Source: Clostridiales bacterium PH28_bin88 | Lineage (GTDB): Bacteria > Bacillota > PH28-bin88 | Assembly (NCBI GenBank): GCA_000987045.1 | Contig: LAKY01000029.1 | Span: forward strand, 1 to 64,000 | Length of the DNA stretch: 64,000 nt | Direction of reading: 5' to 3' | Part shown: piece after piece, positions 23,401 to 39,663 of the stretch | How the letters are laid out: each line of letters starts with the position of its first letter | Position numbering within the stretch: the stretch's first letter is position 1 | Position numbers and translations under genes: made by a program | Notes under the pieces: model-generated | Seen by the model: the letters and a program-made list of their open reading frames with translations, nothing else | The model's database searches: none | What the model was told of the DNA's origin: nothing

Positions 23401-24692
23401 ACATTGGATTTGAGTATTTGAGGCCGGTCCTGGGGTCTAATACCCTGGGCCTGCCAGCTTCGCTGTGCCCGAAGCCACAGCGATAAACCCGCAATCTGCA
23501 CCGCCCGGGGGTCGATGTCGATGCCGTGAATGTTGTGCTCGATAATCAGGCGCGGTACGTCCCGCATCAGTGCTTCTTTGCTCTCGTAGGTTTCCCGCAG
23601 AGGCTTGAGTTTTTCGCTGCGAGCAAAAATTCCGCCGTCAGCCTGGCCTTCCAGATCCCAGGCTTCTTCGTAAATCCTCTCAAAAAGGTCAAAGGCGTAA
23701 AGGCCGAAATGCATGGACCCACACGCGGGGTCTAGCATGCAGATCTCCCGCGGGTCTTTAAGCCGGCGGTACGGTATGTATACCGGCTGTTTGAGCAATT
23801 CCTCTTGGCTAAAGTCTTCCACCGGTTCAACTTGTTCGGGGGCTTGTTCTCCTTCATCCAGGAAAATTTCGTTAGGGCGGCGCACCAGGTAACGGCACTG
23901 GTCTTTTAGTACAGTATTCCCCCGGGTCATCTCGTACCAGATCCTGCCCAGGGTATTATCAGTGAGAAACTCCACCACATAGCGCGGGGTGAAAAACTGG
24001 TTGCGCACGGCCAATTCCCGGCTGTTACGAGGGGCCTGGGATTCGGCCCGCATCTGCCGGCGTTCTTCCGGAGAGTTAAAATATTGGTAAATCCAGCCGA
24101 TTGTTTCATCCTCGATCCACAACGGTGCAATGTCGGGGTGGTTAATTAAGTCCAGCAGTTCCAACAGCACCGACTCCCTGGGGAAAAGGCGACCTTGCGG
24201 GCTGAACCGGTCAAACAGTACAGCAAGGTCTAAGGCACACTCGTCAAAAACGCTGAACAAGTAACAACGATAGGCGTCACCGGTTTCGCCCAGAGCGGCT
24301 CCAGCCAGGCGGGCATAAAGCTGGAATCCCTTGGATTTGTACCCATTAGCAATGGATTCTATAATAATTCCACGAGCCTCAGCCATACGCAGGGCACAAA
24401 GGCGATTAAGCACAGTAAAGGCCTGTTCCCGCACAATTCGGTCAATGCACTCTTTAACGTTGCGGGAAGGGCTTCCTGCCAGGTAATGCTCCAGGGTATC
24501 CCGGAGCAGGCGGGCCGTCTCGCGGCGGTTGTCCTCCAGGTGTGTTAGGCTGTCCAGGCAGCTGACCCCTCCGGTGGCAGGGTCCATGCCGTATTCAGCC
24601 TGTATCTGCCTGGTAAATTCCTTTGTCAACAGGTCCCGGGCATCACTGACAAACTTTTGCAACCGGTTACGGGTAGTTTGATCAAACGCCAT
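20424..24692 (-). CDS. pglX: BREX adenine-specific DNA methyltransferase PglX
   Basis: A 1422-residue methyltransferase that marks host DNA by N6-adenine methylation at an asymmetric site. Motif I appears as LDPACGSMHFGLYAF near residue 320 and motif IV as NPPFGDP near 587. The C-terminal half carries target recognition and BREX-specific domains. It is longer than the ~1200 residues usual for type 1 PglX. The part encoded by about 21.36-22.88 kb is clearly AT-rich (some lines near 28-33% GC) compared with over 50% on both sides, pointing to a swapped specificity block. It starts 7 bases after brxC ends. Confidence 0.94.
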   Translation of the reverse strand: MAFDQTTRNRLQKFVSDARDLLTKEFTRQIQAEYGMDPATGGVSCLDSLTHLEDNRRETARLLRDTLEHYLAGSPSRNVKECIDRIVREQAFTVLNRLCALRMAEARGIIIESIANGYKSKGFQLYARLAGAALGETGDAYRCYLFSVFDECALDLAVLFDRFSPQGRLFPRESVLLELLDLINHPDIAPLWIEDETIGWIYQYFNSPEERRQMRAESQAPRNSRELAVRNQFFTPRYVVEFLTDNTLGRIWYEMTRGNTVLKDQCRYLVRRPNEIFLDEGEQAPEQVEPVEDFSQEELLKQPVYIPYRRLKDPREICMLDPACGSMHFGLYAFDLFERIYEEAWDLEGQADGGIFARSEKLKPLRETYESKEALMRDVPRLIIEHNIHGIDIDPRAVQIAGLSLWLRAQRSWQAQGIRPQDRPQILKSNVVCAEPMPGEKEMLREFTEGLEPRVLGQLVEVIFDKMQLAGEAGSLLKIEEEIEETVAKAREEFNKELLRRQDAANSLFPEFLPPRQQTIYDFTDLPDKTEFWNEAEQKILNALQEYAEQAETTQANRKRLFARDTTRGFAFIDICWKQYDVVLMNPPFGDPVNSIRVLIKTGYGLGTDDLGMLIVARVAGLLQKDGFIGALTSRTYFAIPTGKEWRNMYLLKKPHITVTADLGYGVLDTAMVEAAAYVLQSQTQYLKSTFISLLQDQIKEPFLQDATRDIYKGTTNSRIYVHSTDTFLKVPGQVLAYWWPSNLLKKIGTLSSLKHEIGEVKKGLVTGDDFRFLRLAWEMPPSLIGSPNTWEYCSKGGEYASFYDDIHMLMNWKAVKSEMKVLSSSRIYNTNLCFKKGAVYPKRTTSDLSPRPLSTNCCFNDGAQFVALSNTENAFVFIGFAYTRVFKVLVELLYGGGDVSVSGSAARNYTGGVLEELPCPNLQDSAFEYLLEKSRDAICLAMKRCCSDENSRLFTSIPIVPRKTLKETIRNILNESHKRELQIGDLSYEIDKEFTRIFGLGDDGVSFLERAWGPHPYQYAHSEERFLLTWQQISTFLSNTGIADFSNTNVSRRVLTKKGYFSDRVLEIGAHMTQSHPKHISELLLRDSNYIAEQLSIMTKHLVSYIVGLVVGRWDIRYATGEMDHPKLPDPFDPLPISPPGMLQNADCLPAEPNDILENYPLQISWSGILVDDEGHREDIVGRVREAIEVIWKEKAGNIEQEICEILGVSSLREYFAKPGNFFEEHLKRYSKSRRQAPIYWPISTASGSYTLWLYYHRLTDQTIYTCVNDFIEPKLKEVAESASRLRQKSHRSNAEEKELERLSDLELELRDFRDELLRIAALWKPNLNDGVQITAAPLWKLFRHTPWQKTMKETWQKLEKGEYDWAHLAYSIWPERVREKCKYDKSLAIAHNLEGLYEEKPAGTKKKGGSRGKKQLSGEQ

Positions 24693-24698
24693 ATTCTA

Positions 24699-27600
24699 TC
24701 AGTCCTCGATCTTGATTGATACTTCAATTTCTTTGTAGAGGGCCAATTCGTTCTTCAGTTCCTGGAGCTGCCGGATCAGGTCATCCAACTGATCTGCTTT
24801 TGTAACAGTTGACGGTAGCCTAACGGACCGTGTAATTTTGGTTTTGCCTTCTTGTTTCGCTTTTTCTTTTTCCTCTTCGATCCGGCGCAATCGCCGCTGG
24901 TAGCCCTGGCGAACAATCCCCTCTTTTAACTCCCTCAGCCGTGAATGGATGACAAACTCCTGGCTGATCAGTTGCTTGAGGCCCTGCAGATTTGCGGAAG
25001 CACTAATAATCAAGTCTTCGAGCCGGGCCAGAACATCCGTCTGCTCTTCCCGGGTCAGTTCACCCCATTCCGGCAGCTGGCGGAGTTCCTGTTCCCCCGC
25101 CCGGATGGTATCCTTTTGAGCTTCAGCCATGTTGACAGCGGCATCACGGGTACGGGCCTTGATATTAGTTAGCATAGTGTTTAAGTCGGCTGCGTGCTGG
25201 TAAAAGTCATCCTTGCCCAGTCGTTGGGCTAGATGATCAAGTTCTTCAGCCAGTTCCTCGCGTAACCGGCCGGGGACATCAGTACCGGGCAGCGACCGGA
25301 TTTCGCGGCTATGCAGTTGAAGACTACGGATAGTCTCTTCTAGCCCCTGTTTCAGGGCAAGGTCTACCTCTCCAGCCCATTTCAAAGCATTATAGAGAGA
25401 CGATTCCTCGCCTCCGAGCCGCTGAGGAGCGTCTGAAGCATTGGTAAACAATATGTCGGCGATCTCCTGGTTCAACGAGCGAATACGTTCTACACCCGGA
25501 AGCCCCAAAGAGGAAAGCTTTCCTTCCAGGGGTGCAAAACGAGACTGGAACTGGGGTAAATTTTTGGCCGCGGTTTTGCTAATCTCGTCTTCCAGGGGCA
25601 CGACCAAGTCGCCTACCAGTTCTGTCAAACGCTCTGCAGCCCGGGCTAGAACTTCCATAGAAGGGCGTTCCTCACGTGGCGCCACGCCGACGGTCTTGAA
25701 CGTATTATTTGTCTTGAGGGCATCGATGGCTTGTTGGCCATTTACCGTCACTTCACGCCCGGAAACTTTCAGTTTAATCTCCCCGGCAACCAGGAGCGAC
25801 GCTACCAAGTAACGGAGGGTGTCCGGGGACCAGCCGAACGGCGCTCCTGTAAAATAGTCAATCAGGCGTTTCCCTTCTACCGTACCGTTACGGTCTAGAT
25901 AGTCACGAACGCTAACCAAGGCTTTGTGATCTGTTTTAATGGACGGTTTTCCACCAATAATCTGCACCAGGCCCAGGGGATCGATTTTCGAGGTGACTGC
26001 TGTAAGATTACCCGCACGGAGAAACTGTTCTGCAACTGTGGTCTCAACCCGGACAGGAGCCTCGGCAAATCGGTCAAAAACCAATACAGCCACCTCGGCC
26101 AGGTATTTCTTGCTAGATTCGAGCACATCCTGGTCAAGACTATCCACGGCTGTGGTCTGTCCACGGAAAATAAACGACCCCCGGGCCAGGCAACGCTTGA
26201 GAATATGCTTTAGTTCACTGGCTAGTTTTGCTGCGCGGTCAGCTTGGGCAACGCAATACTCCTTGATTTCCTGGTCAGGCTCATTCCGGTAGCGCTGGCA
26301 GATTTCCCGGCAACGATAAATATCAGCAACTTTTTCTTCAATTTCGGGCACGGTGCGCCCTACCAGGTAAATGATATTATGGGAGCTTTTATGCCGGGAT
26401 TCATCCACGAGCCGGGTACGGGCCGTCTCGTAGTCACTAGGTTCAACGAATTCCACCACGGTCTGGATGATTTCCCGCTCGCCAGCCAAACTGGCGGCAA
26501 AGGAGCCGTTCTGAATTTTTAACCCGGAAGTGACTGCTAGAGCTCCGTTTAAACGTGTGGATGGAAGCGGGCTAAAAGCTTCCCGCAAGGTTTCATTGAA
26601 GATGCGGCGGGTCTCAGCGGACCGTATCGGAATCTGGGCGCGTTCCTGCTCTATCTCGTTGAGTTTCTCGCTGAAAAAACGCAGGTTGCCGTCCTGCTCG
26701 CCAAAAGGAACGAAGGAGTCATTAATCAGCTCGCTGACTGACTTTTCGATGTCATCTTTACGTGAAGAGGCATTGATGTTTGGATGCATGAGGCTAGCCA
26801 CGTTTTGAACAGTTACCGGCAGATTGCCTAGAATCTGCAACACTGCTACAGTTTTGGCAATCTCTTGGTGCAGTATGGACTCCGTAAAACGTATCCGCAC
26901 TTTTTCAACAGCACGGTGGATCGACGGAAATGCCCGGCGGATATCTTTTTCAAGGGCATCGTACAATGTCACAGTGGTGGCCAACCAGCCTATTGGCTGT
27001 TCCGCGACAGGGGACCGTCCGTCGGCTCCTTCAATCAGGATGTCCTGAATGACCTTTATGGCTGAACGCAGGCCGATTCCGCCCGTGGATTTGGCCAGTG
27101 CCCCCAATAAATGAAGGAGAATGTCAAAGTGGGCCGGTAGAAACGGGTAAAGATTAACGAAAGTCTCCTTGTTAAAATCCGAATCGTAGTATTTTGCATC
27201 CTGTAATTTTGTGTGGTGACGGAGGCTCTGCCCGTACTGGTCAAACAAGTTACCGAGCCGTATCTCGCCTTGCGGGGATTTGCCTAAAAGGCGACGATAA
27301 CAGATCTCCCTGATATCACTGGATTCCAAGTCAACCTGGATGGGAAACCGGTCCTTAAGCTTATACAGCTCCGGTGAGTTTAACGCCGCTCTGGGGTCGT
27401 CCTCGGTGAGTGTTTGTTGTGCGGTGCCCATAATCCAGACCTTTCCGCCACCGTTGTTCTTCAGATTCTTGGCTAAGCCATCCAGGTTCAGAATGAGATT
27501 TTGGCGGGACCCGACATACTGCCCAACCTCATCAATAATAAAAATGATGCATTGCTTGCCTGAGGTCTCCCGGACAATGTCAATCATTTCTTGTACACGC

Positions 27601-28322
27601 TCATTTTCAAACCGCACGAAATCACTTGTTTCGGTTGTAAAGGCTGTAGGGGTTTTGAACAGTTGCGGGTAAATTTGATGAGCAATTTCCGGCATTATAC
27701 TGTCAACTACCAAAGGGTCATTTTGGATATCGGACCACTCCACACCCAAGTCATTAAAGATTCTCTGCTTAAACTCTTCATACCGGCCATCTTTTTGTAA
27801 TTTACGCTCCAAAGCGGCCACCTTGAGGTTACGGGAGTAGCCAGCCCATTGCAGTACTTTATAATAAAGAACAGTGGAGACATCCTCCATTGTCGCTCCT
27901 GTCAGCATCTCACTGGCCAAGTCAAGAAGCACCACTGCCGCAGGGAATCGTTTGGCGACCGCAACTAACAGCGCCTTCGTCTGTGGTTTATGCAGGCGGT
28001 CCTGCAAATACTGGAGAAAGGGGATGCCATCAATCTGAGCCCGTGAATCCAAAGCAAGACCTAGATACTTGGTAAAAGAACTTTTACCGGAACCGTAGAA
28101 GCCGGAAACCCATACGCCAATTTCATTTTCGCCGCCCATTTCCATTGCAGCCTGCATCTTCGTGAGCAGTTTTTCTAACTGCTCTTCGATGCTTTCCGTA
28201 ACGATATATTCCGAAATCTCCGCCTTCAGACGGTGCTCTTGCGAGGCATTGTAAGTAATGACTTTTTCAATCGAGCGGTAAATATCCTTGTTTTGATCGA
28301 ATAAACTTTTAATTCTTTCCAT
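24699..28322 (-). CDS. brxC: BREX protein BrxC (P-loop ATPase)
   Basis: A 1207-residue ATPase of the BrxC/PglY family. Walker A is GFYGSGKSSFTKYLG near residues 69-83, and a Walker B-like block IIFIIDEVGQYVG lies near 260. The C-terminal third is rich in charged, probably coiled-coil sequence. BrxC is a core component of all BREX systems and is thought to assemble with BrxB, PglZ and PglX. Length and position in the operon are typical of type 1 and type 6. Confidence 0.94.
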   Translation of the reverse strand: MERIKSLFDQNKDIYRSIEKVITYNASQEHRLKAEISEYIVTESIEEQLEKLLTKMQAAMEMGGENEIGVWVSGFYGSGKSSFTKYLGLALDSRAQIDGIPFLQYLQDRLHKPQTKALLVAVAKRFPAAVVLLDLASEMLTGATMEDVSTVLYYKVLQWAGYSRNLKVAALERKLQKDGRYEEFKQRIFNDLGVEWSDIQNDPLVVDSIMPEIAHQIYPQLFKTPTAFTTETSDFVRFENERVQEMIDIVRETSGKQCIIFIIDEVGQYVGSRQNLILNLDGLAKNLKNNGGGKVWIMGTAQQTLTEDDPRAALNSPELYKLKDRFPIQVDLESSDIREICYRRLLGKSPQGEIRLGNLFDQYGQSLRHHTKLQDAKYYDSDFNKETFVNLYPFLPAHFDILLHLLGALAKSTGGIGLRSAIKVIQDILIEGADGRSPVAEQPIGWLATTVTLYDALEKDIRRAFPSIHRAVEKVRIRFTESILHQEIAKTVAVLQILGNLPVTVQNVASLMHPNINASSRKDDIEKSVSELINDSFVPFGEQDGNLRFFSEKLNEIEQERAQIPIRSAETRRIFNETLREAFSPLPSTRLNGALAVTSGLKIQNGSFAASLAGEREIIQTVVEFVEPSDYETARTRLVDESRHKSSHNIIYLVGRTVPEIEEKVADIYRCREICQRYRNEPDQEIKEYCVAQADRAAKLASELKHILKRCLARGSFIFRGQTTAVDSLDQDVLESSKKYLAEVAVLVFDRFAEAPVRVETTVAEQFLRAGNLTAVTSKIDPLGLVQIIGGKPSIKTDHKALVSVRDYLDRNGTVEGKRLIDYFTGAPFGWSPDTLRYLVASLLVAGEIKLKVSGREVTVNGQQAIDALKTNNTFKTVGVAPREERPSMEVLARAAERLTELVGDLVVPLEDEISKTAAKNLPQFQSRFAPLEGKLSSLGLPGVERIRSLNQEIADILFTNASDAPQRLGGEESSLYNALKWAGEVDLALKQGLEETIRSLQLHSREIRSLPGTDVPGRLREELAEELDHLAQRLGKDDFYQHAADLNTMLTNIKARTRDAAVNMAEAQKDTIRAGEQELRQLPEWGELTREEQTDVLARLEDLIISASANLQGLKQLISQEFVIHSRLRELKEGIVRQGYQRRLRRIEEEKEKAKQEGKTKITRSVRLPSTVTKADQLDDLIRQLQELKNELALYKEIEVSIKIED

Positions 28323-28347
28323 GATTTACCCACCTCTAAAATACGCT

Positions 28348-28920
28348 TTACCCGCCCACATGCACTGAACGGTAGTTCCCGTCTTCGGGGTAAAAACCTA
28401 GAAATTTCAAACGTGTTTTTCCGGTCCGTTCTCCGGGGTAAAGGAATACGGTTGGTACATTGAATTTACCTTGGAGCTTAGTTTCTATGGATCCAATTCG
28501 CATGTATGGATGAAGCGCTTCCAGATCTGTCACTAGGAGAATAGCATTGTTACGTCCCTCCAGTTGCTCCAACTGGGCAATAAGCCGTGATTCTAAAGAA
28601 CCGTTCGTGACCGCATTAGCTAGTGACTGGTTTGTCCTTGCCCAGGCCAAAGGTGCCTGTTTATCCGCCGTCATCCAGAGTTTGCGGAGCGGGGCATTTT
28701 GAAGGATTGATATAATATTCTCGGCTATTGAGAATATAGTAACGTCCCATCCATCATTGCGCAATTTTGCAATCCAGGCAGGTAATTGTCTTTTGACTTC
28801 TAAGATCTGTTTGGGGTCAAAAATTAAATAGTAGATAGGTTCAAAACTAGCATGGCCTAGTTCCCGCCCATAGCGAATCCGCCTAATCAGTTCATTAAAA
28901 TCATCCTTGAGCGATGGCAT
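28348..28920 (-). CDS. brxB: BREX protein BrxB (DUF1788)
   Basis: A 190-residue protein with the DUF1788/BrxB pattern: PIYYLIFDPKQILEVKRQLPAW near 26-47 and a C-terminal block with VTDLEALHPYMRIGSIE and VFLYPGERTG. BrxB is a small conserved component that bridges BREX core proteins; no enzymatic activity is known. Its start lies 20 bases inside the end of brxA, indicating coupling. Confidence 0.9.
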   Translation of the reverse strand: MPSLKDDFNELIRRIRYGRELGHASFEPIYYLIFDPKQILEVKRQLPAWIAKLRNDGWDVTIFSIAENIISILQNAPLRKLWMTADKQAPLAWARTNQSLANAVTNGSLESRLIAQLEQLEGRNNAILLVTDLEALHPYMRIGSIETKLQGKFNVPTVFLYPGERTGKTRLKFLGFYPEDGNYRSVHVGG

Positions 28921-29698
28921 CGGTTAACTCCTCCCAGTTTTTGTAGTTCCAACCTACGCGAATGACATCGCCTGCAGTCTGAACAATAAAAAACTTCTTG
29001 AACGACAACCGTTTTAATTCGTTAACCACATCTTCTCTTTCCATTCCAAATAGCTCCCAGTCAGCATGGACAGCCATGGCATTATCTCCTGCACCCGAAA
29101 AATGTAGATCATAAGCCAGAAAAACGGAGACTGTAGGCTCGATCCGATAAGGAATGATTTTACGGACTCTTTTTATACCGGGCTCCAACATTCCAAAATC
29201 GGCACAACACCTTGTTAAATAACCAGCGACACGTTCAATCACGTTATCAGACCAGGGCTTGACGGTTTTCCCATGCTGAATTGCCTTAGTGACGAAATCC
29301 CTGGCATCTTCATTACTAATTATTTCGTACCCGCTTGAGTAACGATGCCAATAGATTTCGCGCACAAAGTCGGTCAAAATCAAATTGGCCCGGCAGGTAA
29401 ATAGAAACAAGAGTTGAGTAAATTCAATTCGTGTTAAAATTGGCTCTAGTTTTTTCAAGATGATAGCCGGATAGTCGTTTACAACCAAATATCTCGGTGC
29501 GAAGCATTCAGAAATGAGATTCTGGAGACGACGGGCTGACATACTAGGAAAGTTCCCGGAATCTAGAGCGTATTGAAAGAGCTGAGAAGCACTCATATCT
29601 GGTTCCCAGAGTTCCAAAAGTTTTCGGGTTTCCTCGATTGCACCTAAGCCAGCCTGAAGTTGTGTTGTGTATAATATCTCTTTTTTCAGTTCCTTCAT
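28901..29698 (-). CDS. brxA: BREX protein BrxA (DUF1819)
   Basis: A 265-residue protein of the DUF1819 family. Recognisable segments are QLQAGLGAIEETRKLLELW near the start, LILTDFVREIYWHRYSSG near the middle and a C-terminal winged-helix-like part (LFGMEREDVVNELKRLSF). BrxA is a small DNA-binding BREX protein whose role in defence is not fully settled. At 265 residues it is somewhat longer than the ~200 usual for type 1 BrxA. It follows brxE after 6 bases. Confidence 0.88.
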   Translation of the reverse strand: MKELKKEILYTTQLQAGLGAIEETRKLLELWEPDMSASQLFQYALDSGNFPSMSARRLQNLISECFAPRYLVVNDYPAIILKKLEPILTRIEFTQLLFLFTCRANLILTDFVREIYWHRYSSGYEIISNEDARDFVTKAIQHGKTVKPWSDNVIERVAGYLTRCCADFGMLEPGIKRVRKIIPYRIEPTVSVFLAYDLHFSGAGDNAMAVHADWELFGMEREDVVNELKRLSFKKFFIVQTAGDVIRVGWNYKNWEELTDAIAQG

Positions 29699-29704
29699 TA
29701 TCCA

Positions 29705-30214
29705 TTATCCCTCTGAAAAGAATGGAAATACCTGATTATTTGATTCGAATGCCTGCCTGTAGTACCGTGCTGCAACTTGCCAAACATCTTTCCTTACGAT
29801 GTCCTTCAGGCCACCAATACGGACAGGACCGACAATAGAGTCCATATTTGGTCCACCAAATAATTCCAAGACATCAAGGGCATCGGTTCTACTGGCTATA
29901 TCTCGTATTACTTGTTTAACGATTTCAGAGTCAGATAAAAGATCATGCAACTCCTGCTCAATCGTTTCAGGAAGTCTAAATAGATGAAATACTCCACGTC
30001 CAACACCAATGTAATTGTCATGTACTTTCGTTGCTGACTCTTTGACTCCGTAATACTGGGCAAGAGTCATGGTTTTCCCGAACACAGGAACTAAAAAGGT
30101 TCTACTGCTTGGTGAGAAGAAGGAACAAGACCACCAGCCAAACTGGCCTTGCTCGCCAAGATACCCTACAATCAGTCTTAATCTAGCAAGGAAAATATGG
30201 TCACTTCGTTTCAT
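29705..30214 (-). CDS. brxE: BREX protein BrxE
   Basis: A 169-residue protein resembling BrxE, with the motif LRLIVGYLGEQGQFGWWSCSF near residues 11-31 and a later IGVGRGVFHLFRLPETIEQ. BrxE is the marker of BREX type 6 and its function is unknown. Here it opens an operon that is otherwise type 1 in content, ending in brxL and lacking brxD and brxHI. The ATG at 30214 is preceded by GGGAG. I saw no clear vegetative promoter upstream. Confidence 0.8.
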   Translation of the reverse strand: MKRSDHIFLARLRLIVGYLGEQGQFGWWSCSFFSPSSRTFLVPVFGKTMTLAQYYGVKESATKVHDNYIGVGRGVFHLFRLPETIEQELHDLLSDSEIVKQVIRDIASRTDALDVLELFGGPNMDSIVGPVRIGGLKDIVRKDVWQVAARYYRQAFESNNQVFPFFSEG

Positions 30215-31037: not shown

Positions 31038-32384
31038 TCAACAAACATTATTTTTTTCTTGACACAATTTAAGAAGTGCCACTTCGGCCTCGTTAGCCCA
31101 AGTCACTGTTTCGCCCCGAGCCATTCGTGCTTGCCTGATTAAGGCAAGATTACGTGCCGTGGTTTCTGGTTCCCATGACTCGCGTGCAAGAGCTAAAGCA
31201 TTTGCTAACGCAATTTCGCCGACCTTTTGATCACGCCCTAGTATTGCTAACTCTAGTTGCGTAGCATAGTCCCAGTAGTCGGGTTCGCCTTGGGCGATGC
31301 GCATTTCGTTTGAGTAGCGCACAACAGGTAATAGTACAGATTGGCGCGGGTCTGGTGGAGTCTTAACCTCCATGAGCGTTACAGCATTAATCCCTGGATA
31401 AGCGTCCCGCCAATCGGCTTCGAATCCCTTAAGATAAGCTGAAATGGCCTGATCAAGCAGGCCTTGTGCTAGATATATATTGCCGGAATTTATCGCTTTT
31501 TCCCAGCGGTCTTTGTAGACCCGTCCTAGTATTCCATAGGTCTCACTGCTACCACCCCGCTCTGCGATTAAATCTTTCAATACCCGTTCGGCCTCATCAC
31601 TCCGCCCAATGCGGTTTAAAGCTAAACCTAATTGTTCACGAACCAATACCGTTACTGACAGTGGTGGCGCCATACGTTCGACTAGAGAGATCATACGCCC
31701 CCACGATTTTACTGCACGATAGGAAAGAAAGAGATCTACTACCACTGCAGCATCGGCACGGCTGATGTCTCCTAGTTCAGTTTCCACAGCCACTACAGCA
31801 ATCTCACCTTCTTGCCGTGCCTTGGTAAGCTTGGCCTTAATGTCCTCAGAATATCGGATACGGTCACGAAAAACATCAGTTTTAAGTCGTGCAATGTCAG
31901 GAACAGGAAAACCCTCTAGCATTTGAAACAAAGGACTGTCAGTAGTTGCCCCCATAGCCTCTTTTAGTCGTTCTGTTAGAATTACAACATTTCGCTTCGT
32001 GTTCGTAGGCTTACCGTCTGGCCCAAGTTGGTAAGGTATAGCACGTAATAGTCCTACATCAAAAGGCAGTTGCCCCCAACCCTCAGCAAAGAGTAATTGA
32101 GTTGCCCAAGGCCTTACCGAATGCCGTATTCCTAACTCATAAAATACATTTGCATTTGCAGTGGTTAAATCGGCTACAGCGTACTCGCAAAGAACTAGGC
32201 GTTCGAACATAGCCTTGTGAATTACCCCACCTGTTATGTCTTCATCTGCCCGTAGGGGCTCTAGTCCCGCATCTATCACTGCAGGTTTGATAAGTTTTTC
32301 ATAAACTACATCAAAGTTCACCACCCGGCCATCACCAGCGGGTTTCTTGCCAAAAGGCATAAGTATAAAGCAGAGGGGTCGCAT
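31038..32384 (-). CDS. DRHyd-like / TPR protein (TPR-S, TRAFs-binding-like), candidate effector
   Basis: A 448-residue protein. The N-terminal ~110 residues (CFILMPFGKKPAG, then AGLEPLRADED, then CEYAVADLTTANANVFYELG) match the nucleoside-deoxyribosyltransferase-like domain found in 'TRAFs-binding'/TPR-S proteins, a Rossmann-like fold related to TIR and SLOG folds. Residues ~190-440 are helical and TPR-like. Proteins of this kind recur in bacterial conflict systems. It is the last gene of the five-gene TIR/deazaguanine operon, 6 bases after the TIR gene. A role as sensor or effector for the TIR product is inference; regulatory roles are possible. Confidence 0.75.
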   Translation of the reverse strand: MRPLCFILMPFGKKPAGDGRVVNFDVVYEKLIKPAVIDAGLEPLRADEDITGGVIHKAMFERLVLCEYAVADLTTANANVFYELGIRHSVRPWATQLLFAEGWGQLPFDVGLLRAIPYQLGPDGKPTNTKRNVVILTERLKEAMGATTDSPLFQMLEGFPVPDIARLKTDVFRDRIRYSEDIKAKLTKARQEGEIAVVAVETELGDISRADAAVVVDLFLSYRAVKSWGRMISLVERMAPPLSVTVLVREQLGLALNRIGRSDEAERVLKDLIAERGGSSETYGILGRVYKDRWEKAINSGNIYLAQGLLDQAISAYLKGFEADWRDAYPGINAVTLMEVKTPPDPRQSVLLPVVRYSNEMRIAQGEPDYWDYATQLELAILGRDQKVGEIALANALALARESWEPETTARNLALIRQARMARGETVTWANEAEVALLKLCQEKNNVC

Positions 32385-32390
32385 ATCAAA

Positions 32391-32876
32391 TCACTCCAAA
32401 CCGCTGATGGTCTCGGAAAGCTTTGCCCAAGGGACGCACTTGATTGTATTATGTTCAATTGCTTTTGGTAGCTTAGCGGGTCGTGTTTCTCCCGCAAAAA
32501 CCCCAATCACTTGCTTTCCTCTTCTGAGACTTTCTTCAATTTCCCACTCAACCCAATGGCTAGACGGTGTTTTATCTGAGAGATAGACTACAGTTAGCGA
32601 GGATTGAGCAATGCGTTCTCCAATTTTTTGCTTAATATAAGGTGACCGTTCACTATTAAAGGGCTCAGATACTGACCAATCGTTGAATTCAATTGGAGAT
32701 TTTTCATTCTTTGCCTGTGCCCGTAAGAGGTTTACATAATCAATATCCTCATACGCAAAGCTTATAAAAACATTCTTTTTTCCTTGCTTTTCGCCTTCTC
32801 TTAATTCCTCTTTTGCTCGTTCTACAAGGGTCTCCAGATCGCCGATACCATGCAAGCTGCCTCCACCACCGCCCAT
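32391..32876 (-). CDS. TIR-domain protein with Met-Gly5 N terminus
   Basis: A 161-residue protein. The ATG at 32876 has GGAGGTG seven bases upstream, which fixes the start; longer readings have no such site. The protein begins MGGGGGS, then a charged helix (~12-32), then a TIR domain of the DUF1863/ThsB-like type (VFISFAYEDIDYVNLLRAQA at 36-55; LTVVYLSDKTPSSHWVEWEI at 94-113). The predicted catalytic Glu is 112. Such TIRs make NAD-derived cyclic signals in Thoeris. The gene begins three bases after the QueC-like gene ends. The exposed poly-glycine after Met removal could be a substrate for N-terminal conjugation. Confidence 0.85.
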   Translation of the reverse strand: MGGGGGSLHGIGDLETLVERAKEELREGEKQGKKNVFISFAYEDIDYVNLLRAQAKNEKSPIEFNDWSVSEPFNSERSPYIKQKIGERIAQSSLTVVYLSDKTPSSHWVEWEIEESLRRGKQVIGVFAGETRPAKLPKAIEHNTIKCVPWAKLSETISGLE

Positions 32877-32878
32877 TG

Positions 32879-33469
32879 TTACACCTCCAAATCGATATAC
32901 TCCCGACAAGCTACACAGACACCACAAGGCTCCTCGGTGCCTAGATGACATGAATAGGTCCCATCTATTCCTTTTAATTTGGCAATTCGTACAATCTCTG
33001 CTTTAGAAAAAGACATTAGAGGCGTTATGATGCGTATCGAATGACCAAGACCTTTGGAGATTAAATCTTCTGTATCCCTGATGAAATCTACAGTTTGATC
33101 CGGAAATAAGCTAAATGCCTCATCAAGAAGACCTATTGCTACTGCATTAGCATTACACTGGTATGCGTAGGCTGCTCCTATTGTTAAAAACAATAGGTTT
33201 CTACAAGGTAGAAAGGCATCTTCGAAAACTCTCTTATTCGGATCTGTTAAGCCCGAAGACAGTAGTGCCCCGTAACCGCCAAGTCGCATAATTTTAGGAG
33301 TGGGAAGCCCGTAACGTTGGAAGTTATTTAAACAGGCATTTAACTCCTTATCTCGGTTAAGTTGTCCGTAATCAATGAATAAGGGGAATTGAACAATTTT
33401 TTCTTCATGTGCCAATATGGCCATTATGGTTGAATCCAAACCACCTGATACAAGAGTAACTATACTCAT
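32879..33469 (-). CDS. QueC-like ATP-dependent deazaguanine enzyme (Cap9-like)
   Basis: A 196-residue member of the QueC family. The PP-loop SGGLDS is at 8-13, FIDYGQLNRDKE follows, and four zinc-binding Cys are at 174, 182, 185 and 188 (GTEEPCGVCVACRE). QueC converts carboxy-deazaguanine to preQ0; QueC relatives in type IV CBASS (Cap9) and Qat systems act in defence. No queD/queE/folE neighbours are present, and the context is an OGG-like glycosylase and TIR proteins, so a housekeeping queuosine role is unlikely. Start and stop overlap or abut its neighbours, showing operon coupling. Confidence 0.88.
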   Translation of the reverse strand: MSIVTLVSGGLDSTIMAILAHEEKIVQFPLFIDYGQLNRDKELNACLNNFQRYGLPTPKIMRLGGYGALLSSGLTDPNKRVFEDAFLPCRNLLFLTIGAAYAYQCNANAVAIGLLDEAFSLFPDQTVDFIRDTEDLISKGLGHSIRIITPLMSFSKAEIVRIAKLKGIDGTYSCHLGTEEPCGVCVACREYIDLEV

Positions 33470-34164
33470 AAACCCAACTCCCTAGCAGCCCGCATTGTTG
33501 CCCAAATTGCCCAGTCCAAATATCCGACGGGGTAACCTAATGAATTAGCATAATTTTTGACAACACGTTCTGTCCGTTCGTAAGCTGGAAGGGTTGCTAT
33601 ATTCATATGCTCCTGGCACACAATATTTTGCATTTTCATAAAGCGAAGCACATGGGTATCTAGAATAGCAAGATCGTAACTTATGCCAATGTTACGAAGG
33701 AACATACTGGCTTGTTTGGGCCCAATTCCAGCGATATCCATAACCAATCGCTGTCTTATGTTCTTTGGATCTGTATTTTTAAAAAGCCGTTCAGAAAGGG
33801 GCCACTTAGCGATAGCGTTACGAGCTGTTGCCAACTGATGAGCCCTAGTTTTTGGAAACCGATAGCACCAGTTATCATGGTTTTGATGGGTTTTGCCCGA
33901 AAGCACCTCAAATATCTTGGTTTCAAAATTATCCTCTACATTACACCACCATTCATCATTAAGTAATCCTGCCCTTTCTATTCGCTCCAATGCAGTGTAA
34001 GCCATTTCATACCTTACTTGGCTCCCGAGTATACATGCCACTAATTCTCTTCGTAATAAGTACTCATTCAAATGATTGTCTAAATAAATATTTTGTTCGA
34101 TGATAGGGCAAAGTACACGAACAGTGTCTTCCAATTGTGCTAAATTGCATAGGTTTATTCTCAT
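33466..34164 (-). CDS. OGG-like HhH-GPD glycosylase fold protein (Cap11-like)
   Basis: A 232-residue protein with the helix-hairpin-helix IAGIGPKQASMFLRNIG (146-160) and a downstream LAILDTHVLRFM. Lys150 and Asp169 sit where 8-oxoguanine glycosylase/lyases keep their catalytic Lys and Asp. The C-terminal GYLDWAIWATMRAARELG is typical of the OGG2/archaeal-type group. In type IV CBASS a relative is Cap11. It may cleave or recognise a modified purine, possibly the deazaguanine adduct made by its neighbours rather than 8-oxoG. Start overlaps the TIR-TGT stop (ATGA) and the stop overlaps the QueC-like start. Confidence 0.83.
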   Translation of the reverse strand: MRINLCNLAQLEDTVRVLCPIIEQNIYLDNHLNEYLLRRELVACILGSQVRYEMAYTALERIERAGLLNDEWWCNVEDNFETKIFEVLSGKTHQNHDNWCYRFPKTRAHQLATARNAIAKWPLSERLFKNTDPKNIRQRLVMDIAGIGPKQASMFLRNIGISYDLAILDTHVLRFMKMQNIVCQEHMNIATLPAYERTERVVKNYANSLGYPVGYLDWAIWATMRAARELGL

Positions 34165-35615
34165 TTCAGCATCAATTCCTTAAATAATTTAGTCCCAATT
34201 ATTGGTATGTATTTTAACAAATGCTCTACCTGACCTGCTGCAATCATATCTTGCATAGTTTTTGTCCAATCGCTAAAAAAATCAATATTGTAACTTAATA
34301 CTCGTGCCACATAAGATGCGTTAGGGTTTTCAATTATTCTACGAATTTCGTGAGATTGCAACCGCGAAAGGCAATGATCGCTAAAAAAATCGAAATGCTG
34401 GAAGTGGAACAAATAGCCGTTATTATAATCGGCTACTGTTCGGCACCATTCTAGACCATCAAAAGAATCAGCACCAGCTGCTGCAAAAGCTATCATGGAA
34501 ATGGGATTTCCGGTGCCTAACAGATGGAAGGGGTAATATTTACCGAGATTGTTTAATGCTTTCCTAATATCACGGACTGTCCTAACCCGTTCAACAAGAC
34601 CATCACCCAACTCCCGTTCAGGAATTGCAACCATAACAGGCTTAAGCTCCGAAGTAACTTTGGCAACAAGTTGTGAAGCACATCCAGCAAGTGTTCCTTC
34701 ATATTTATCTGGTAAATGGATAATCGGGCAAAGAGGAAAATCTAGTGGGCTAATGGCCTTTTCATCTTGACGAAAATTCCGAATGATACGATCAGCAACT
34801 TCGTCGATGTCTCCTTGTGGATTTACCTCATCAAAGCTAAATGCAATATCTGGAGAGAGCACACCTGCTATTTCTCTAAAATAATTTTTTTGCCAGCCTT
34901 TCTTATTTTCTTCTGAGTACCGGTCATCTTTTCTGAAGGCCTCATAATTCCCCGAGTCAAGAACTATTGTGCAAGATGACTGGCGCAACTCATAAACGCT
35001 ATTGAAAAAGTCTTTACCTATATCTTTGTCTACCATGTATTTCCAAGCATCATAGGCAGAAATGAGAGTAGCAGCAGGTTTGAGTAATTGGAACAGCTTC
35101 ACACCATCCTTCGGTGAAACCTGAGTCTCATGAGAAGAAAGAGAGAATATAAAGCATGGTAGTTTAAAACTCTTATTTTCCAATTTAAGCGTTAATGTCC
35201 GTTCTAAATTATTATCGTCTTTCTGTTTTTCTCCTAATTTGGCAACAATCTTCTGTTTCAACTGCTTATAACCAGGATGGTTTTCGTCACCATTCCAACC
35301 AAAAGCGTCTGTCCTATTTAGATGACCAAAACCTAATGGTGGTTCTACTTCATCAATAAAAAATGGATAAATGAGTCTTTCTTGTTTTTCTGCAAACCTT
35401 AGCTCATCCCTAAATATCTTTTTATCTGCAGTATGGTAAGAAAAAACCGGTACCACGGCCTTTGTACTGCTAATCTGGGAGCGAACCTCTTTCTCCCAAT
35501 CACCTTGGGCAATATCCCCTGCCCACCACACATTCCAGCTCCTACGGAGGAGCAATACTAATTTTTCAGCAATTGTTTCATTTTCTGAAGCAAAAATTAC
35601 GCAGATATCCGTCAT
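34161..35615 (-). CDS. TIR domain fused to tRNA-guanine transglycosylase-like domain (Cap10-like)
   Basis: A 484-residue fusion. Residues 1-130 form a TIR domain (MTDICVIFASENETIAEKLV; candidate catalytic Glu71 in FRDELRFAE). Residues ~150-484 are a TGT-like barrel: VLDSGNYE near 218-225, FHLLGTGNP at 363-371 and GADSFDGLEW at 381-390, where Asp386 occupies the nucleophile position. The CXCXXC-His zinc cluster of canonical TGTs is not visible. The ATG at 35615 with AAGGAGT upstream is a much better start than an upstream in-frame ATG at 35735. First gene of the five-gene operon. TGT relatives in type IV CBASS are Cap10; fusion to TIR is unusual. Confidence 0.85.
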   Translation of the reverse strand: MTDICVIFASENETIAEKLVLLLRRSWNVWWAGDIAQGDWEKEVRSQISSTKAVVPVFSYHTADKKIFRDELRFAEKQERLIYPFFIDEVEPPLGFGHLNRTDAFGWNGDENHPGYKQLKQKIVAKLGEKQKDDNNLERTLTLKLENKSFKLPCFIFSLSSHETQVSPKDGVKLFQLLKPAATLISAYDAWKYMVDKDIGKDFFNSVYELRQSSCTIVLDSGNYEAFRKDDRYSEENKKGWQKNYFREIAGVLSPDIAFSFDEVNPQGDIDEVADRIIRNFRQDEKAISPLDFPLCPIIHLPDKYEGTLAGCASQLVAKVTSELKPVMVAIPERELGDGLVERVRTVRDIRKALNNLGKYYPFHLLGTGNPISMIAFAAAGADSFDGLEWCRTVADYNNGYLFHFQHFDFFSDHCLSRLQSHEIRRIIENPNASYVARVLSYNIDFFSDWTKTMQDMIAAGQVEHLLKYIPIIGTKLFKELMLK

Positions 35616-35976: not shown

Positions 35977-37929
35977 ATGATTCCGGTGCAAAAACCCCCT
36001 CAAAATACCTATAAATCGACATAATTCTGAAGGAATATTTTCCATCATAGCGAATCATAAAGATTCAGGAAGAGATACAGAGCAGCAGTAACCAAATCTG
36101 CTTCCAGGGGGTATAGAGCGTGTTCAGGGAGAATAGAACGCATTTACAAACAGCATTATTTAATACCACCACCTTGATGCACCCCAGAACAACGGCTCAG
36201 CTAAAGAAAAGCTGGGCGCCTATCTACTACGAGCACGTGTTTTGCAAGATAGACGAAAAGAAGTTTGCGCCCCTTTATTGCCCGGATAATGGTAGTCCCA
36301 ACAAGCCGGTCAACATCCTCCTTTCCCTGGAATTTATTAAACACCTGTATGACTATACCGACGAGCAACTATTGGAGCAGTATTACTTCAACTACCAGAT
36401 AGCCTATGCTCTGGGGCAACGTAACCTGGGCGAACTATACATTTGTGAAAGGACCCTTTATGACTTCCGCCGCCGGGTTTACGAGTATACCCTTAAGCAT
36501 CCAGAAGAAGAGGACCTGATATTCCAGCAATTTCAAGAACTCCTTGGCCACTTCATTGCCATAACCAAAATCAAAACCGATGAACAGCGCATGGATTCCA
36601 CAGCCATCATGCCCAATATCAAACGAGCCGGAAGGTTAGCGCTGGCCTTTGACGTTTTAAAACAAGGGGTGGCAGCCTGCCCTCAGGAGCTATTACCAGA
36701 AACCCTCAAGAAGGCCTTAGAACCTGCTTTTAAAACCGAGGTTCTTTATCACTCCCGCAGCCAGGACGTCAAAGCCAGGCTTGAAAAAATCCTGGAGCTG
36801 CAAGAGCAACTGGTGGTCATTACCCATTCCATGCCGGGGATCGCTGGCTTGCCCCAAATAAAACTTGTTCAGCGGTTTATTGAAGAGCAGACCACCTATG
36901 ATCCGGAACAAAAGAAGCGGGTAGTCAAAGAAAACAAAGACATTAGCCCGGACTCCTTACAGTCAGCCTATGACCCGGATGCCACCTACCGCAAGAAAGG
37001 TAACAAAGAACAGGTAGGTTACGTATGCAACCTCACCGAAACCTGCAGTGAAGACAATCCCGTCCAGTTGCTCACTGACTACACCATGGAAAAGAACATC
37101 AAAGCCGATGTCGAAATGGCCACAGAGCGCCTACCTGAAATTAAAGAAAGGACAGGTTTAACAGACCTCTATGCCGATGGCGGCTTTTACGGCGAAGATA
37201 CCCACCGGAAGGCCGAAGAAGAACTGGGCGTGAAGATGCACTATACCGATTTAACCGGACGGAAGCCGGCGGCGGACAAAATACCCCTGGCTGACTTTAG
37301 CATTGAAAATCATAAGAAGGTATTAGCCTGCCCGCAAGGGCAGGTTCCCACCCACACCTTTTTTGACGAACCCAACAGAAAAATTACTGCCTGGTTTGAC
37401 CCCCAAATTTGCCGGGAGTGCCCTTGCCGGGAACAATGCCCGGTTAAAATCCAGAAGAAAAAAGCCCTGCTGCAATTTAATCAAAGCGCATTGCTGGCCG
37501 CCGAGACCCGCAAAGATCTGGCCAATGCTGAATGCCGGCGTCAAAATATCAGCAAACGGGCAGCCATCGAAGGTACTATCTCGGCGGTGAAACGCGGTCG
37601 CGGCGCTTCCAAACTGGCTGTACGTGGTGGGCTCAAATGCGCCCTGGTAATGGGCCTGAAGTGTATCGCCCAGAATTTCCAGCAACTTAAAAGGTGGTTT
37701 CTTAATCAAGCGAGGGATGCGAAGGGAATATCTGTCAAACCCAAAACACCTACTTTGCAAGGGGTTAGTGTCCCTGTTTGATGGAAAAACCAGGAAAAAG
37801 GAGGTAATAATGCTCCCGCCTGTAGTTTTAAGGAGACCACATCGTCCATAAAATACCATTTTTGCTGTCAAAGAGCTCTTGGGTACTTAGAATAGGTCAT
37901 TTAATTTTGGGTTCTTGCACCGGAATCAT
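35977..37929 (+). mobile_element. IS1182-type insertion sequence with terminal inverted repeats
   Basis: Left end ATGATTCCGGTGCAAAAACCC (35977 onward) and right end, read inward, ATGATTCCGGTGCAAGAACCC (37929 backward) are near-perfect inverted repeats about 1.95 kb apart around one intact transposase. AGAT occurs next to both ends, but a target duplication is not certain. Confidence 0.88.
36120..37781 (+). CDS. IS1182-family transposase
   Basis: A 553-residue DDE transposase. The N-terminal DUF772-like region (NIL..LEFIKHLYDYTDEQLLEQ), the central ADGGFYGEDTHRKAEEEL block and the C-terminal cysteine segment (CRECPCREQCP) followed by RAAIEGTISAVKRGRG are typical. The frame is complete, so the element may still move. 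A 56-base relic of the same gene lies at 5747-5802. It sits between the TIR-TGT operon and the Thoeris-like pair. Confidence 0.93.
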   Translation: MFRENRTHLQTALFNTTTLMHPRTTAQLKKSWAPIYYEHVFCKIDEKKFAPLYCPDNGSPNKPVNILLSLEFIKHLYDYTDEQLLEQYYFNYQIAYALGQRNLGELYICERTLYDFRRRVYEYTLKHPEEEDLIFQQFQELLGHFIAITKIKTDEQRMDSTAIMPNIKRAGRLALAFDVLKQGVAACPQELLPETLKKALEPAFKTEVLYHSRSQDVKARLEKILELQEQLVVITHSMPGIAGLPQIKLVQRFIEEQTTYDPEQKKRVVKENKDISPDSLQSAYDPDATYRKKGNKEQVGYVCNLTETCSEDNPVQLLTDYTMEKNIKADVEMATERLPEIKERTGLTDLYADGGFYGEDTHRKAEEELGVKMHYTDLTGRKPAADKIPLADFSIENHKKVLACPQGQVPTHTFFDEPNRKITAWFDPQICRECPCREQCPVKIQKKKALLQFNQSALLAAETRKDLANAECRRQNISKRAAIEGTISAVKRGRGASKLAVRGGLKCALVMGLKCIAQNFQQLKRWFLNQARDAKGISVKPKTPTLQGVSVPV

Positions 37930-38286: not shown

Positions 38287-39234
38287 TTAAATTTTCTTTT
38301 CATCAACCAATCGCCAATAATGATATCCTAAAGCAGTAAGACGACATGACTTAGAATTCATTGCTGCAAAATACATATGCTCTTCATCAACAGGCTTAAC
38401 CAAACCGACAGACTCAAATTTCTGAAGGTCTTTAAAAATACGTACATTATCTTCATTTGGGCTATCAGACGTGAACTCAAATGAGGGGTCTAGCTTAAAT
38501 TGCTCTTCAGGGCTAGAAAAATAATCCTTGATTTTTCGCAGTGTTTCCAGGGCCACGGGCGGATTAATTTTTCTCAAGGGGGTGAACCGGGATACATTTG
38601 TTTTAAAAATTGGCCTTTGCTCCCAGGCACCCAGAGCAGAGTCAACATACGAATATAAATTGCCAGGAGTAATAAAACCTCTGAGGTCAGCAGCACCACC
38701 GCGTAATGCATCAACTAATAAAGCAGTGAAAACGCCAGAACCACCTTTTTCTAGAGCATATTCTGAAGCTCGACTTGCTGTTAAAACAGTTAACCCATCC
38801 CCAAGAAATGCGGCAGAGGAACCTGTAAGAGCAGGACTTGCAAAGGCACCTGAGTGGCAACAGTCAAGGATAATAATTTTATCCCTGGCCTTTGAGTTGT
38901 TAGCAACAGTAAGAATTTCATCCATTGAAAGCCCTTCATCGTATCTTTTAGAATCCGCAGTGACAATATAGCCACCAGTTGGTTTTATGAGCCCATGCCC
39001 GGAAAAGTAAAAAAGAGCTACTTCAGCATCGCCTTCAAAGAGACTTTCAATTAATTCCCGAAGAGATGCTCTAGTAATTTTATGCGGTGGATCTGTCAAA
39101 AGTTTCACAGAAAAATTTGGGGAACCATCTCCATTTACTTCAAAAACGCTAGCCACTTCAATTGCATCATTTACACACCCGTATAATGGGGCAAAAGGGT
39201 AATCGTTCACACCTACTATTAAAGCTTTTCTCAT
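38287..39234 (-). CDS. Caspase-like cysteine protease (type IV Thoeris-like effector)
   Basis: A 315-residue protein with a C14 caspase/metacaspase fold at residues ~1-200. It opens RKALIVGVNDYPFAPLYGC; the catalytic His is His80 (FYFSGHGLI) and the Cys is in ILDCCHSGAF (Cys126, or Cys125). Residues ~215-315 form a separate domain with a winged-helix-like end. The ATG at 39234 is preceded by GAGGTG, favoured over a GTG nine bases upstream. The TIR gene lies directly upstream in the same operon. TIR plus caspase-like protease is the make-up of type IV Thoeris, where a TIR-made nucleotide activates the protease. Membership is inferred from gene content. Confidence 0.82.
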   Translation of the reverse strand: MRKALIVGVNDYPFAPLYGCVNDAIEVASVFEVNGDGSPNFSVKLLTDPPHKITRASLRELIESLFEGDAEVALFYFSGHGLIKPTGGYIVTADSKRYDEGLSMDEILTVANNSKARDKIIILDCCHSGAFASPALTGSSAAFLGDGLTVLTASRASEYALEKGGSGVFTALLVDALRGGAADLRGFITPGNLYSYVDSALGAWEQRPIFKTNVSRFTPLRKINPPVALETLRKIKDYFSSPEEQFKLDPSFEFTSDSPNEDNVRIFKDLQKFESVGLVKPVDEEHMYFAAMNSKSCRLTALGYHYWRLVDEKKI

Positions 39235-39246
39235 AACTTTCACCTC

Positions 39247-39663
39247 TTACTTGGCAAGCTCTTTAATAGCACTTATTATCGAGCTAGATTGCCATTTGAC
39301 AATCTTGTCAGCATTGTCCTTAACCACCGTTGAAGTCCGCTCTGAACCCCAAGGTTCTATAGCTATGATAGGCTTAACAGTCGCAAAACCATTTTTTGCA
39401 ATATCTATTTCCTTGTTAATCCACTTACTGTATGTAGAATAGACCCCAGCCAGAATAAGAATTACATGGCATGGCTGAATTTGCTTTTTAATGGCTTCAT
39501 AAAGTTCCTTGTCATTTTTTGCATTATGAACAGGATCGTCCTTAGGAACGGAATAGTTTTTGTAGCTAAAATTTGAGTCTTTGTTTAACAGGCCAATTAA
39601 ACCATCATAAGCGCCACTATAACTCCAGGAATGGCTAATGAAAAGATTATACTGATTATTCAT
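39247..39663 (-). CDS. ThsB-like TIR-domain protein
   Basis: A 138-residue single TIR domain of the DUF1863 type: YNLFISHSWSYSGAYDGLIG near the start, YSVPKDDPVH at 37-46, and TYSKWINKEIDIA with candidate catalytic Glu85. The start ATG at 39663 has AGGAGGTG upstream; a longer in-frame start at 39696 lacks one. In Thoeris, ThsB makes an NAD-derived signal on phage recognition. The partner caspase-like gene begins 12 bases after its stop. It is separate from the TIR genes at 32.4-35.6 kb and not closely similar to them. Confidence 0.85.
   Translation of the reverse strand: MNNQYNLFISHSWSYSGAYDGLIGLLNKDSNFSYKNYSVPKDDPVHNAKNDKELYEAIKKQIQPCHVILILAGVYSTYSKWINKEIDIAKNGFATVKPIIAIEPWGSERTSTVVKDNADKIVKWQSSSIISAIKELAK

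What the first reader, a model, noticed from the sequence alone, without database searches (positions are those of the whole stretch)
32800..32876. TIR protein begins Met-Gly-Gly-Gly-Gly-Gly, three bases after the QueC-like gene
The ribosome site GGAGGTG fixes the start so that the mature protein would open with five glycines after Met removal, followed by a short charged helix and the TIR domain. I recall recent work, which I cannot verify here, proposing that the type IV CBASS QueC homologue attaches a deazaguanine to the N terminus of its partner CD-NTase. A poly-Gly N terminus directly beside a QueC gene would fit an analogous protein-nucleobase conjugation on a TIR enzyme, with the TGT-like and OGG-like proteins as possible transfer or removal enzymes.
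Basis: partly seen in the sequence, partly recalled or inferred. Interest (0 to 1): 0.8.

Follow-up and report, generated by a model that had tools for sequence, protein, structure and literature searches.

The report
QueC-linked TIR with conserved glycine start
A bacterial defence operon pairs a QueC-type enzyme with a TIR immune protein whose Met-Gly-Gly start is kept in 84 of 85 relatives across many phyla, which suggests that a modified nucleobase is attached to the TIR's N terminus, as recently shown for a different immune enzyme.

Summary
The TIR at 32876-32391 (-) reads Met-Gly5-Ser, 2 nt (not 3) after the QueC stop. A database scan seeded with QueC returned 80 loci (the best matches). 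All 80 have this TIR next to QueC; 77 show the full order TGT-like (fused to a TIR, or alone), OGG-like, QueC, TIR. With five Rhizobiaceae plasmids and the window, 84 of 85 intact TIRs start Met-Gly-Gly under a start rule blind to glycine; the exception is Met-Ala-Gly. None of 278 other genes in these loci, and none of 10 related TIRs without QueC, does. No CD-NTase was found in these loci. Type IV CBASS CD-NTases, the known target of the QueC homologue Cap9, carry nearly the same tail (MGGSGGGFF) on an unrelated fold. This QueC forms a clade apart from Cap9 but keeps the ATP, zinc and deazaguanine-binding residues; the TGT-like protein resembles Cap10. Best reading: a module resembling type IV CBASS in which QueC attaches a 7-deazaguanine to Gly2 of a TIR enzyme. 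The chemistry is inferred. Main difficulty: this host lacks QueD, QueE and canonical QueC, so the nucleobase source is unknown; 44 of 50 other hosts have QueD.

The parts
34161..35615 (-). TIR-TGT fusion: N-terminal TIR domain and C-terminal tRNA-guanine-transglycosylase-like domain resembling CBASS Cap10
   Evidence: Pfam TIR_2 5.9e-11 and TGT 9.2e-6; PADLOC CBASS TGT 2.5e-26; profile hits PDB Cap10 9ntn at 2.4e-11; Foldseek to TGTs and Cap10; catalytic Asp positions kept, no CxCxxC zinc motif
33466..34164 (-). OGG-like helix-hairpin-helix glycosylase/lyase
   Evidence: Pfam Ogg-HhH 3e-28; catalytic-type Lys150 and Asp169 in 84 of 84 relatives; 4-nt overlaps with both neighbours
32879..33469 (-). 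QueC-like enzyme, proposed N-terminal nucleobase ligase
   Evidence: Pfam QueC 2e-35; below the TIGR00364 cut-off for canonical QueC; own clade 98/98, active-site residues kept
32391..32876 (-). TIR protein with Met-Gly5-Ser start, proposed acceptor of the modification
   Evidence: ThsB_TIR 2.4e-23; MGG start in 84 of 85 homologues; WVxWE motif with Glu112 invariant; disordered tail then helix in the model
32884..32890 (-). Shine-Dalgarno GGAGGTG for the TIR, inside the end of QueC
   Evidence: sequence
31038..32384 (-). TPR-S / TRAFs-binding protein, last gene of the operon; candidate sensor or effector
   Evidence: MAP3K_TRAF_bd 3.4e-43 and TPR-S 5.9e-27; present in 36 of 44 loci with the TIR-TGT fusion

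Best explanation
This is a defence module that works like type IV CBASS but with a TIR enzyme in place of the CD-NTase. Methionine is removed from the TIR, exposing Gly2 on a flexible tail. The QueC-like enzyme adenylates 7-carboxy-7-deazaguanine and joins it to the Gly2 amine, as Cap9 does. The TGT-like protein then recognises the modified tail, as Cap10 does, and so holds or licenses the TIR. On infection the TIR acts on NAD+, either making a signal or consuming it, and the neighbouring TPR-S protein (elsewhere also SLATT membrane proteins) takes part in the response. Shown here: the operon, its conservation, the conserved Met-Gly-Gly start, the kept active sites and the link to Cap9/Cap10. 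Inferred: the ligation, the nucleobase, TIR activity and the output.
For: Gene order conserved in loci from many phyla; MGG start 84/85 with controls at 0/278 and 0/10; CD-NTases of four type IV CBASS loci start MGGSGGG although the folds are unrelated, as does PDB CdnD (GGSFGSGF); QueC keeps SGGxDS, Arg90, Asn91, aromatic 122 and Asp124 (the Cap9 Tyr115/Asp117 nucleobase pair), Lys156 and four Cys; QueC and TIR are the best conserved pair between the window and Rhizobiaceae (about 57% against 35% for TGT and 40% for OGG); tail disordered in the model; TIR Glu112 invariant; published chemistry for Cap9 and requirement for Gly2 in QatB (PMC11996544, PMC13279940); 44 of 50 other hosts have QueD.
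Against: No biochemical data. The window's host has no QueD, QueE or canonical QueC, and six of 50 other hosts lack QueD, so CDG cannot come from the usual route there. The TIR-type QueC differs from Cap9 at two near-substrate positions (Gln125 for Cys, His175 for Glu). One homologue starts Met-Ala-Gly. An antiphage role is inferred from family and island context only.
Confidence: 0.7

Rival explanations
1. QueC modifies Gly2 of the TIR, but with something other than 7-carboxy-7-deazaguanine, for example another carboxylated base or acid present in the host.
For: Host and several other carriers lack the CDG pathway; positions 125 and 175 are changed in all TIR-type enzymes; QatC is a precedent for an altered substrate site.
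Against: The aromatic/Asp pair that recognises 7-deazaguanine in Cap9 is kept in 79 of 79 sequences, unlike in QatC; most carriers have QueD.
Confidence: 0.15
2. QueC makes a free deazaguanine product that the TGT-like protein uses; the glycine tail of the TIR is only a flexible linker or binding peptide and is not modified.
For: QueC proteins make free nucleobases in queuosine synthesis; glycine tails are common flexible linkers.
Against: A linker would not need glycines fixed exactly at positions 2 and 3 while the rest of the tail varies; TIRs without QueC lack the tail; the same tail occurs on CD-NTases that are modified by Cap9.
Confidence: 0.1
3. The operon is intact but idle in this host, which cannot supply the nucleobase; it is a recently acquired island gene set.
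For: No QueD, QueE or canonical QueC in a genome rated 100% complete; only this genome of 399 in the phylum sample carries the QueC.
Against: All five reading frames are intact with tight gene coupling; other QueD-less hosts also carry the module; this does not conflict with the mechanism elsewhere.
Confidence: 0.2

Closest known systems
Type IV CBASS (Cap9 QueC, Cap10 TGT, CD-NTase CdnD)
   Same: QueC-like and TGT-like proteins, partner with Met-Gly-Gly tail, SLATT-type membrane protein in some loci
   Different: A TIR replaces the CD-NTase, an OGG-like gene is present (none in the four CBASS loci read here), gene order differs, QueC forms a separate clade
qatABCD (QatB-QatC)
   Different: QatC has extra domains and a changed nucleobase site; QatB is not a TIR; no QatA or QatD here
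Thoeris (ThsB TIR)
   Same: TIR domain of the ThsB family, catalytic-type glutamate kept
   Different: No ThsA-type effector identified; ThsB-like TIRs without QueC lack the glycine tail
Canonical queuosine QueC
   Same: Fold, PP-loop, zinc and nucleobase residues
   Different: Below the TIGR00364 cut-off, no queD/queE/queF neighbours, no such pathway in the host

Membership tests
Type IV CBASS | CD-NTase (cyclic oligonucleotide synthase) in the operon | tested here: not met
   Profile of four type IV CD-NTases finds none in the window or in 85 related loci, and finds all four controls
Type IV CBASS | Cap9-type QueC | tested here: met
   Active-site residues shared; but a separate clade, sister relation only weakly supported at 70/82
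Type IV CBASS | Cap10-type TGT | tested here: met
   Profile hit to 9ntn 2.4e-11; DSG-Y-E and D386-G-W shared, zinc motif absent in both
Type IV CBASS | Partner protein with N-terminal Met-Gly-Gly | tested here: met
   84 of 85 TIRs; four CD-NTases MGGS
Type IV CBASS | Deazaguanylated N terminus | not testable with these tools
   Needs mass spectrometry
qatABCD | QatC-type QueC with extensions and QatB, QatA, QatD | tested here: not met
   196-aa QueC without extensions; QatC model hit only 0.0016-0.0024; no KAP NTPase or TatD among the operon genes
Thoeris | ThsB-type TIR | tested here: met
   ThsB_TIR 2.4e-23; Foldseek to B. cereus TIR 8fz9 and ThsB
Thoeris | ThsA-type effector next to the TIR | tested here: not met
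   Downstream gene is a TPR-S/TRAFs-binding protein
Canonical QueC (queuosine) | Equivalog score and pathway genes | tested here: not met
   112 bits against a cut-off of 150; no QueD and no QueE above generic radical-SAM level in the genome

The most novel reading that the evidence does not exclude
The TGT-like domain keeps the three aspartates that act in transglycosylation and the OGG-like protein keeps its catalytic lysine and aspartate. The deazaguanine on the TIR could therefore serve as the base in a transglycosylation, joining the TIR covalently to a nucleic acid during infection, with the OGG-like enzyme releasing it.
Probability: 0.08. Interest if true: 0.95.

Novelty: new variant of a known kind. 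Interest (0 to 1): 0.8.

Why it matters
If true, attaching a nucleobase to a protein's N-terminal glycine is not a peculiarity of one CBASS type or of Qat but a reusable control device, here put on a TIR enzyme, the domain at the heart of immunity in bacteria, plants and animals. The conserved tail on two unrelated folds beside QueC enzymes makes the question directly testable, and the wide spread gives many experimental hosts. Within the open-licence library searched, QueC in defence is described only for type IV CBASS and qatABCD; key earlier surveys (Burroughs 2015 and 2020, Millman 2020) were not held, so whether the gene neighbourhood was listed before could not be checked.

Tried and rejected
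Chance or a mis-called start: rejected by a start rule blind to glycine and by controls. Membership in CBASS: rejected, no CD-NTase. Canonical queuosine QueC: rejected. A close viral origin: the single-protein scan of viral contigs found nothing; the alignment scan found one contig with the module (L152). No match to the TIR-TGT in phage records. The Science article on deazaguanylation is not held; only the preprint abstract was read. Several literature searches returned nothing on a QueC-TIR-OGG-TGT system. No complex could be modelled, so QueC-TIR docking was not tested.

Full report
Observation. The operon on the minus strand runs TIR-TGT fusion (35615..34161), OGG-like (34164..33466), QueC-like (33469..32879), TIR (32876..32391) and a TPR-S/TRAFs-binding protein (32384..31038), with 4-nt overlaps at the first two junctions, a 2-nt gap before the TIR and a 6-nt gap after it. 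Families were assigned with Pfam, PADLOC and NCBIfam. The TIR starts ATG GGC GGT GGT GGA GGC AGC behind GGAGGTG: Met-Gly5-Ser as reported; only the reported 3-base spacing is off by one.

Generality. TIR-TGT searched against plasmids gave 13 Rhizobiaceae plasmids at about 32% identity; five were read and all show TIR-TGT, OGG, QueC, TIR in one row. An alignment of five QueC proteins was scanned against 84,980 species genomes: 155 stretches matched, 128 were confirmed, and the best 80 by similarity were kept, so the set is chosen for closeness to this QueC and does not show what lies beside more distant ones. All 80 have the TIR beside QueC; 77 have all four genes, one lacks OGG (L068) and two lack TGT or most of OGG in the stretch held (L055, L072). 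They lie in contigs assigned to Pseudomonadota, Nitrospirota, Acidobacteriota, Thermodesulfobacteriota, Bacteroidota, Campylobacterota, Bacillota, Gemmatimonadota and others; many are metagenome-assembled, so single assignments may be wrong.

N terminus. Starts were chosen by Shine-Dalgarno strength, ATG preference and distance from the QueC stop, without regard to glycine. 84 of 85 proteins begin Met-Gly-Gly and one Met-Ala-Gly (L080); an 86th, frameshifted copy (L022) also begins MGGGSSGSW. Position 4 is Gly or Ser in 79, later positions drift. Background: 0 of 278 other genes in the same loci with a strong Shine-Dalgarno begin MGG, 11 begin MG. Ten related TIR matches found in 399 genomes of the phylum with no QueC in the fetched flanks begin directly at the TIR domain, for instance MAKKRVFISF. 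The window's TIR model has residues 3-12 below pLDDT 50, a helix at 14-30 and a TIR fold closest to a B. cereus TIR and ThsB.

Comparison with CBASS. Four type IV CBASS loci were read (L097, L134-L136); their CD-NTases begin MGGSGGGFF (three) and MGGSGGWYN (one), and the PDB CdnD reads GGSFGSGF. Some TIR tails are almost the same (L078 MGGSSGGGLFSSDI against L097 MGGSGGGFFSNSDI). Literature states that Cap9 conjugates CDG to the N-terminal glycine of the CD-NTase, that the motif is MGGS, that G2D blocks it, and that QatB has an essential MGTS start (PMC13279940; PMC11996544).

Enzyme. In a tree of 89 QueC proteins the TIR-type forms one group (98/98) and Cap9 another (100/97); their joining is weak (70/82), and long branches meet there. 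SGGxDS, Tyr/Phe34, Gln36, Glu42, Arg90, Asn91, Asp124, Phe129, Lys156 and four zinc cysteines are kept; position 122 is Phe in place of the Cap9 Tyr that stacks on the base; Gln125 and His175 are specific to the TIR type. The TGT-like protein keeps Asp220, Asp262 and Asp386, which by position in the DSGxY, FDE and FD(C/G) motifs match the aspartates known from Zymomonas TGT (family knowledge), has no CxCxxC zinc motif, and matches Cap10 by profile (2.4e-11) and by fold. The fold search does not by itself prefer Cap10 over other TGTs. OGG keeps Lys150 and Asp169 in 84 of 84.

Accessories. With the TIR-TGT fusion (44 loci) a TPR-S/TRAFs-binding gene is near in 36, a PfkB kinase in 36 and a SLATT protein in 24; with stand-alone TGT (36 loci) SLATT is near in 30, restriction-modification genes in 16 and TPR-S in 6 (families). 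The window has only the TPR-S gene, like its nearest relatives L017, L018, L020.

Host chemistry. The window genome (4.98 Mb, rated 100% complete, 6% contamination) holds no other full QueC, no QueD and no QueE above generic radical-SAM level. Of 50 other carriers 44 have QueD; of the six without, five also lack a canonical QueC. In a sample of 41 relatives of the window host 16 have QueD; this is not a matched comparison. So the module is mostly, not always, found where CDG can be made.

Verdict. Filing the operon under CBASS is not justified, because no CD-NTase is present, but it probably works like type IV CBASS at the QueC step. The ligation, the identity of the base, the activity of the TIR and the antiphage role remain untested.

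Noticed in passing
L161:3281-5609 (also L164, L205, L168, L171, L158, L159): Viral-collection contigs carry a cassette of a 127-aa protein starting MGSTGSGSFSDYPGSRP (no Pfam or PHROG match), a kinase-like/nucleoside-deoxyribosyltransferase protein, a 206-aa QueC and a helix-hairpin-helix protein: a possible further pair of QueC and glycine-tailed protein.
   Followed up: partly
L098:4412-8071: A Moraxella osloensis plasmid has a 120-aa protein starting MSGSGGGINTYNDYSNRP, a PfkB-deoxyribosyltransferase protein, a divergent QueC and a dGTPase in a row.
   Followed up: partly
window 38287-39663: Caspase-like gene beside a second ThsB-type TIR, starting MNNQYNLFISH, which resembles the TIR-caspase pairs called type IV Thoeris (name from memory).
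   Followed up: no
window 20424-30214: BREX-type genes (BrxA by Pfam and PADLOC; neighbours look like BrxB, BrxC and PglX) next to the operon: a defence island.
   Followed up: no
window 36120-37781: Transposase-like ORF between the operon and the caspase-TIR pair.
   Followed up: no
L152:1654-8792: An 82-kb contig of the viral collection carries the whole module with PfkB, SLATT, a second TIR and TPR-S; possibly a prophage or misassigned island.
   Followed up: no
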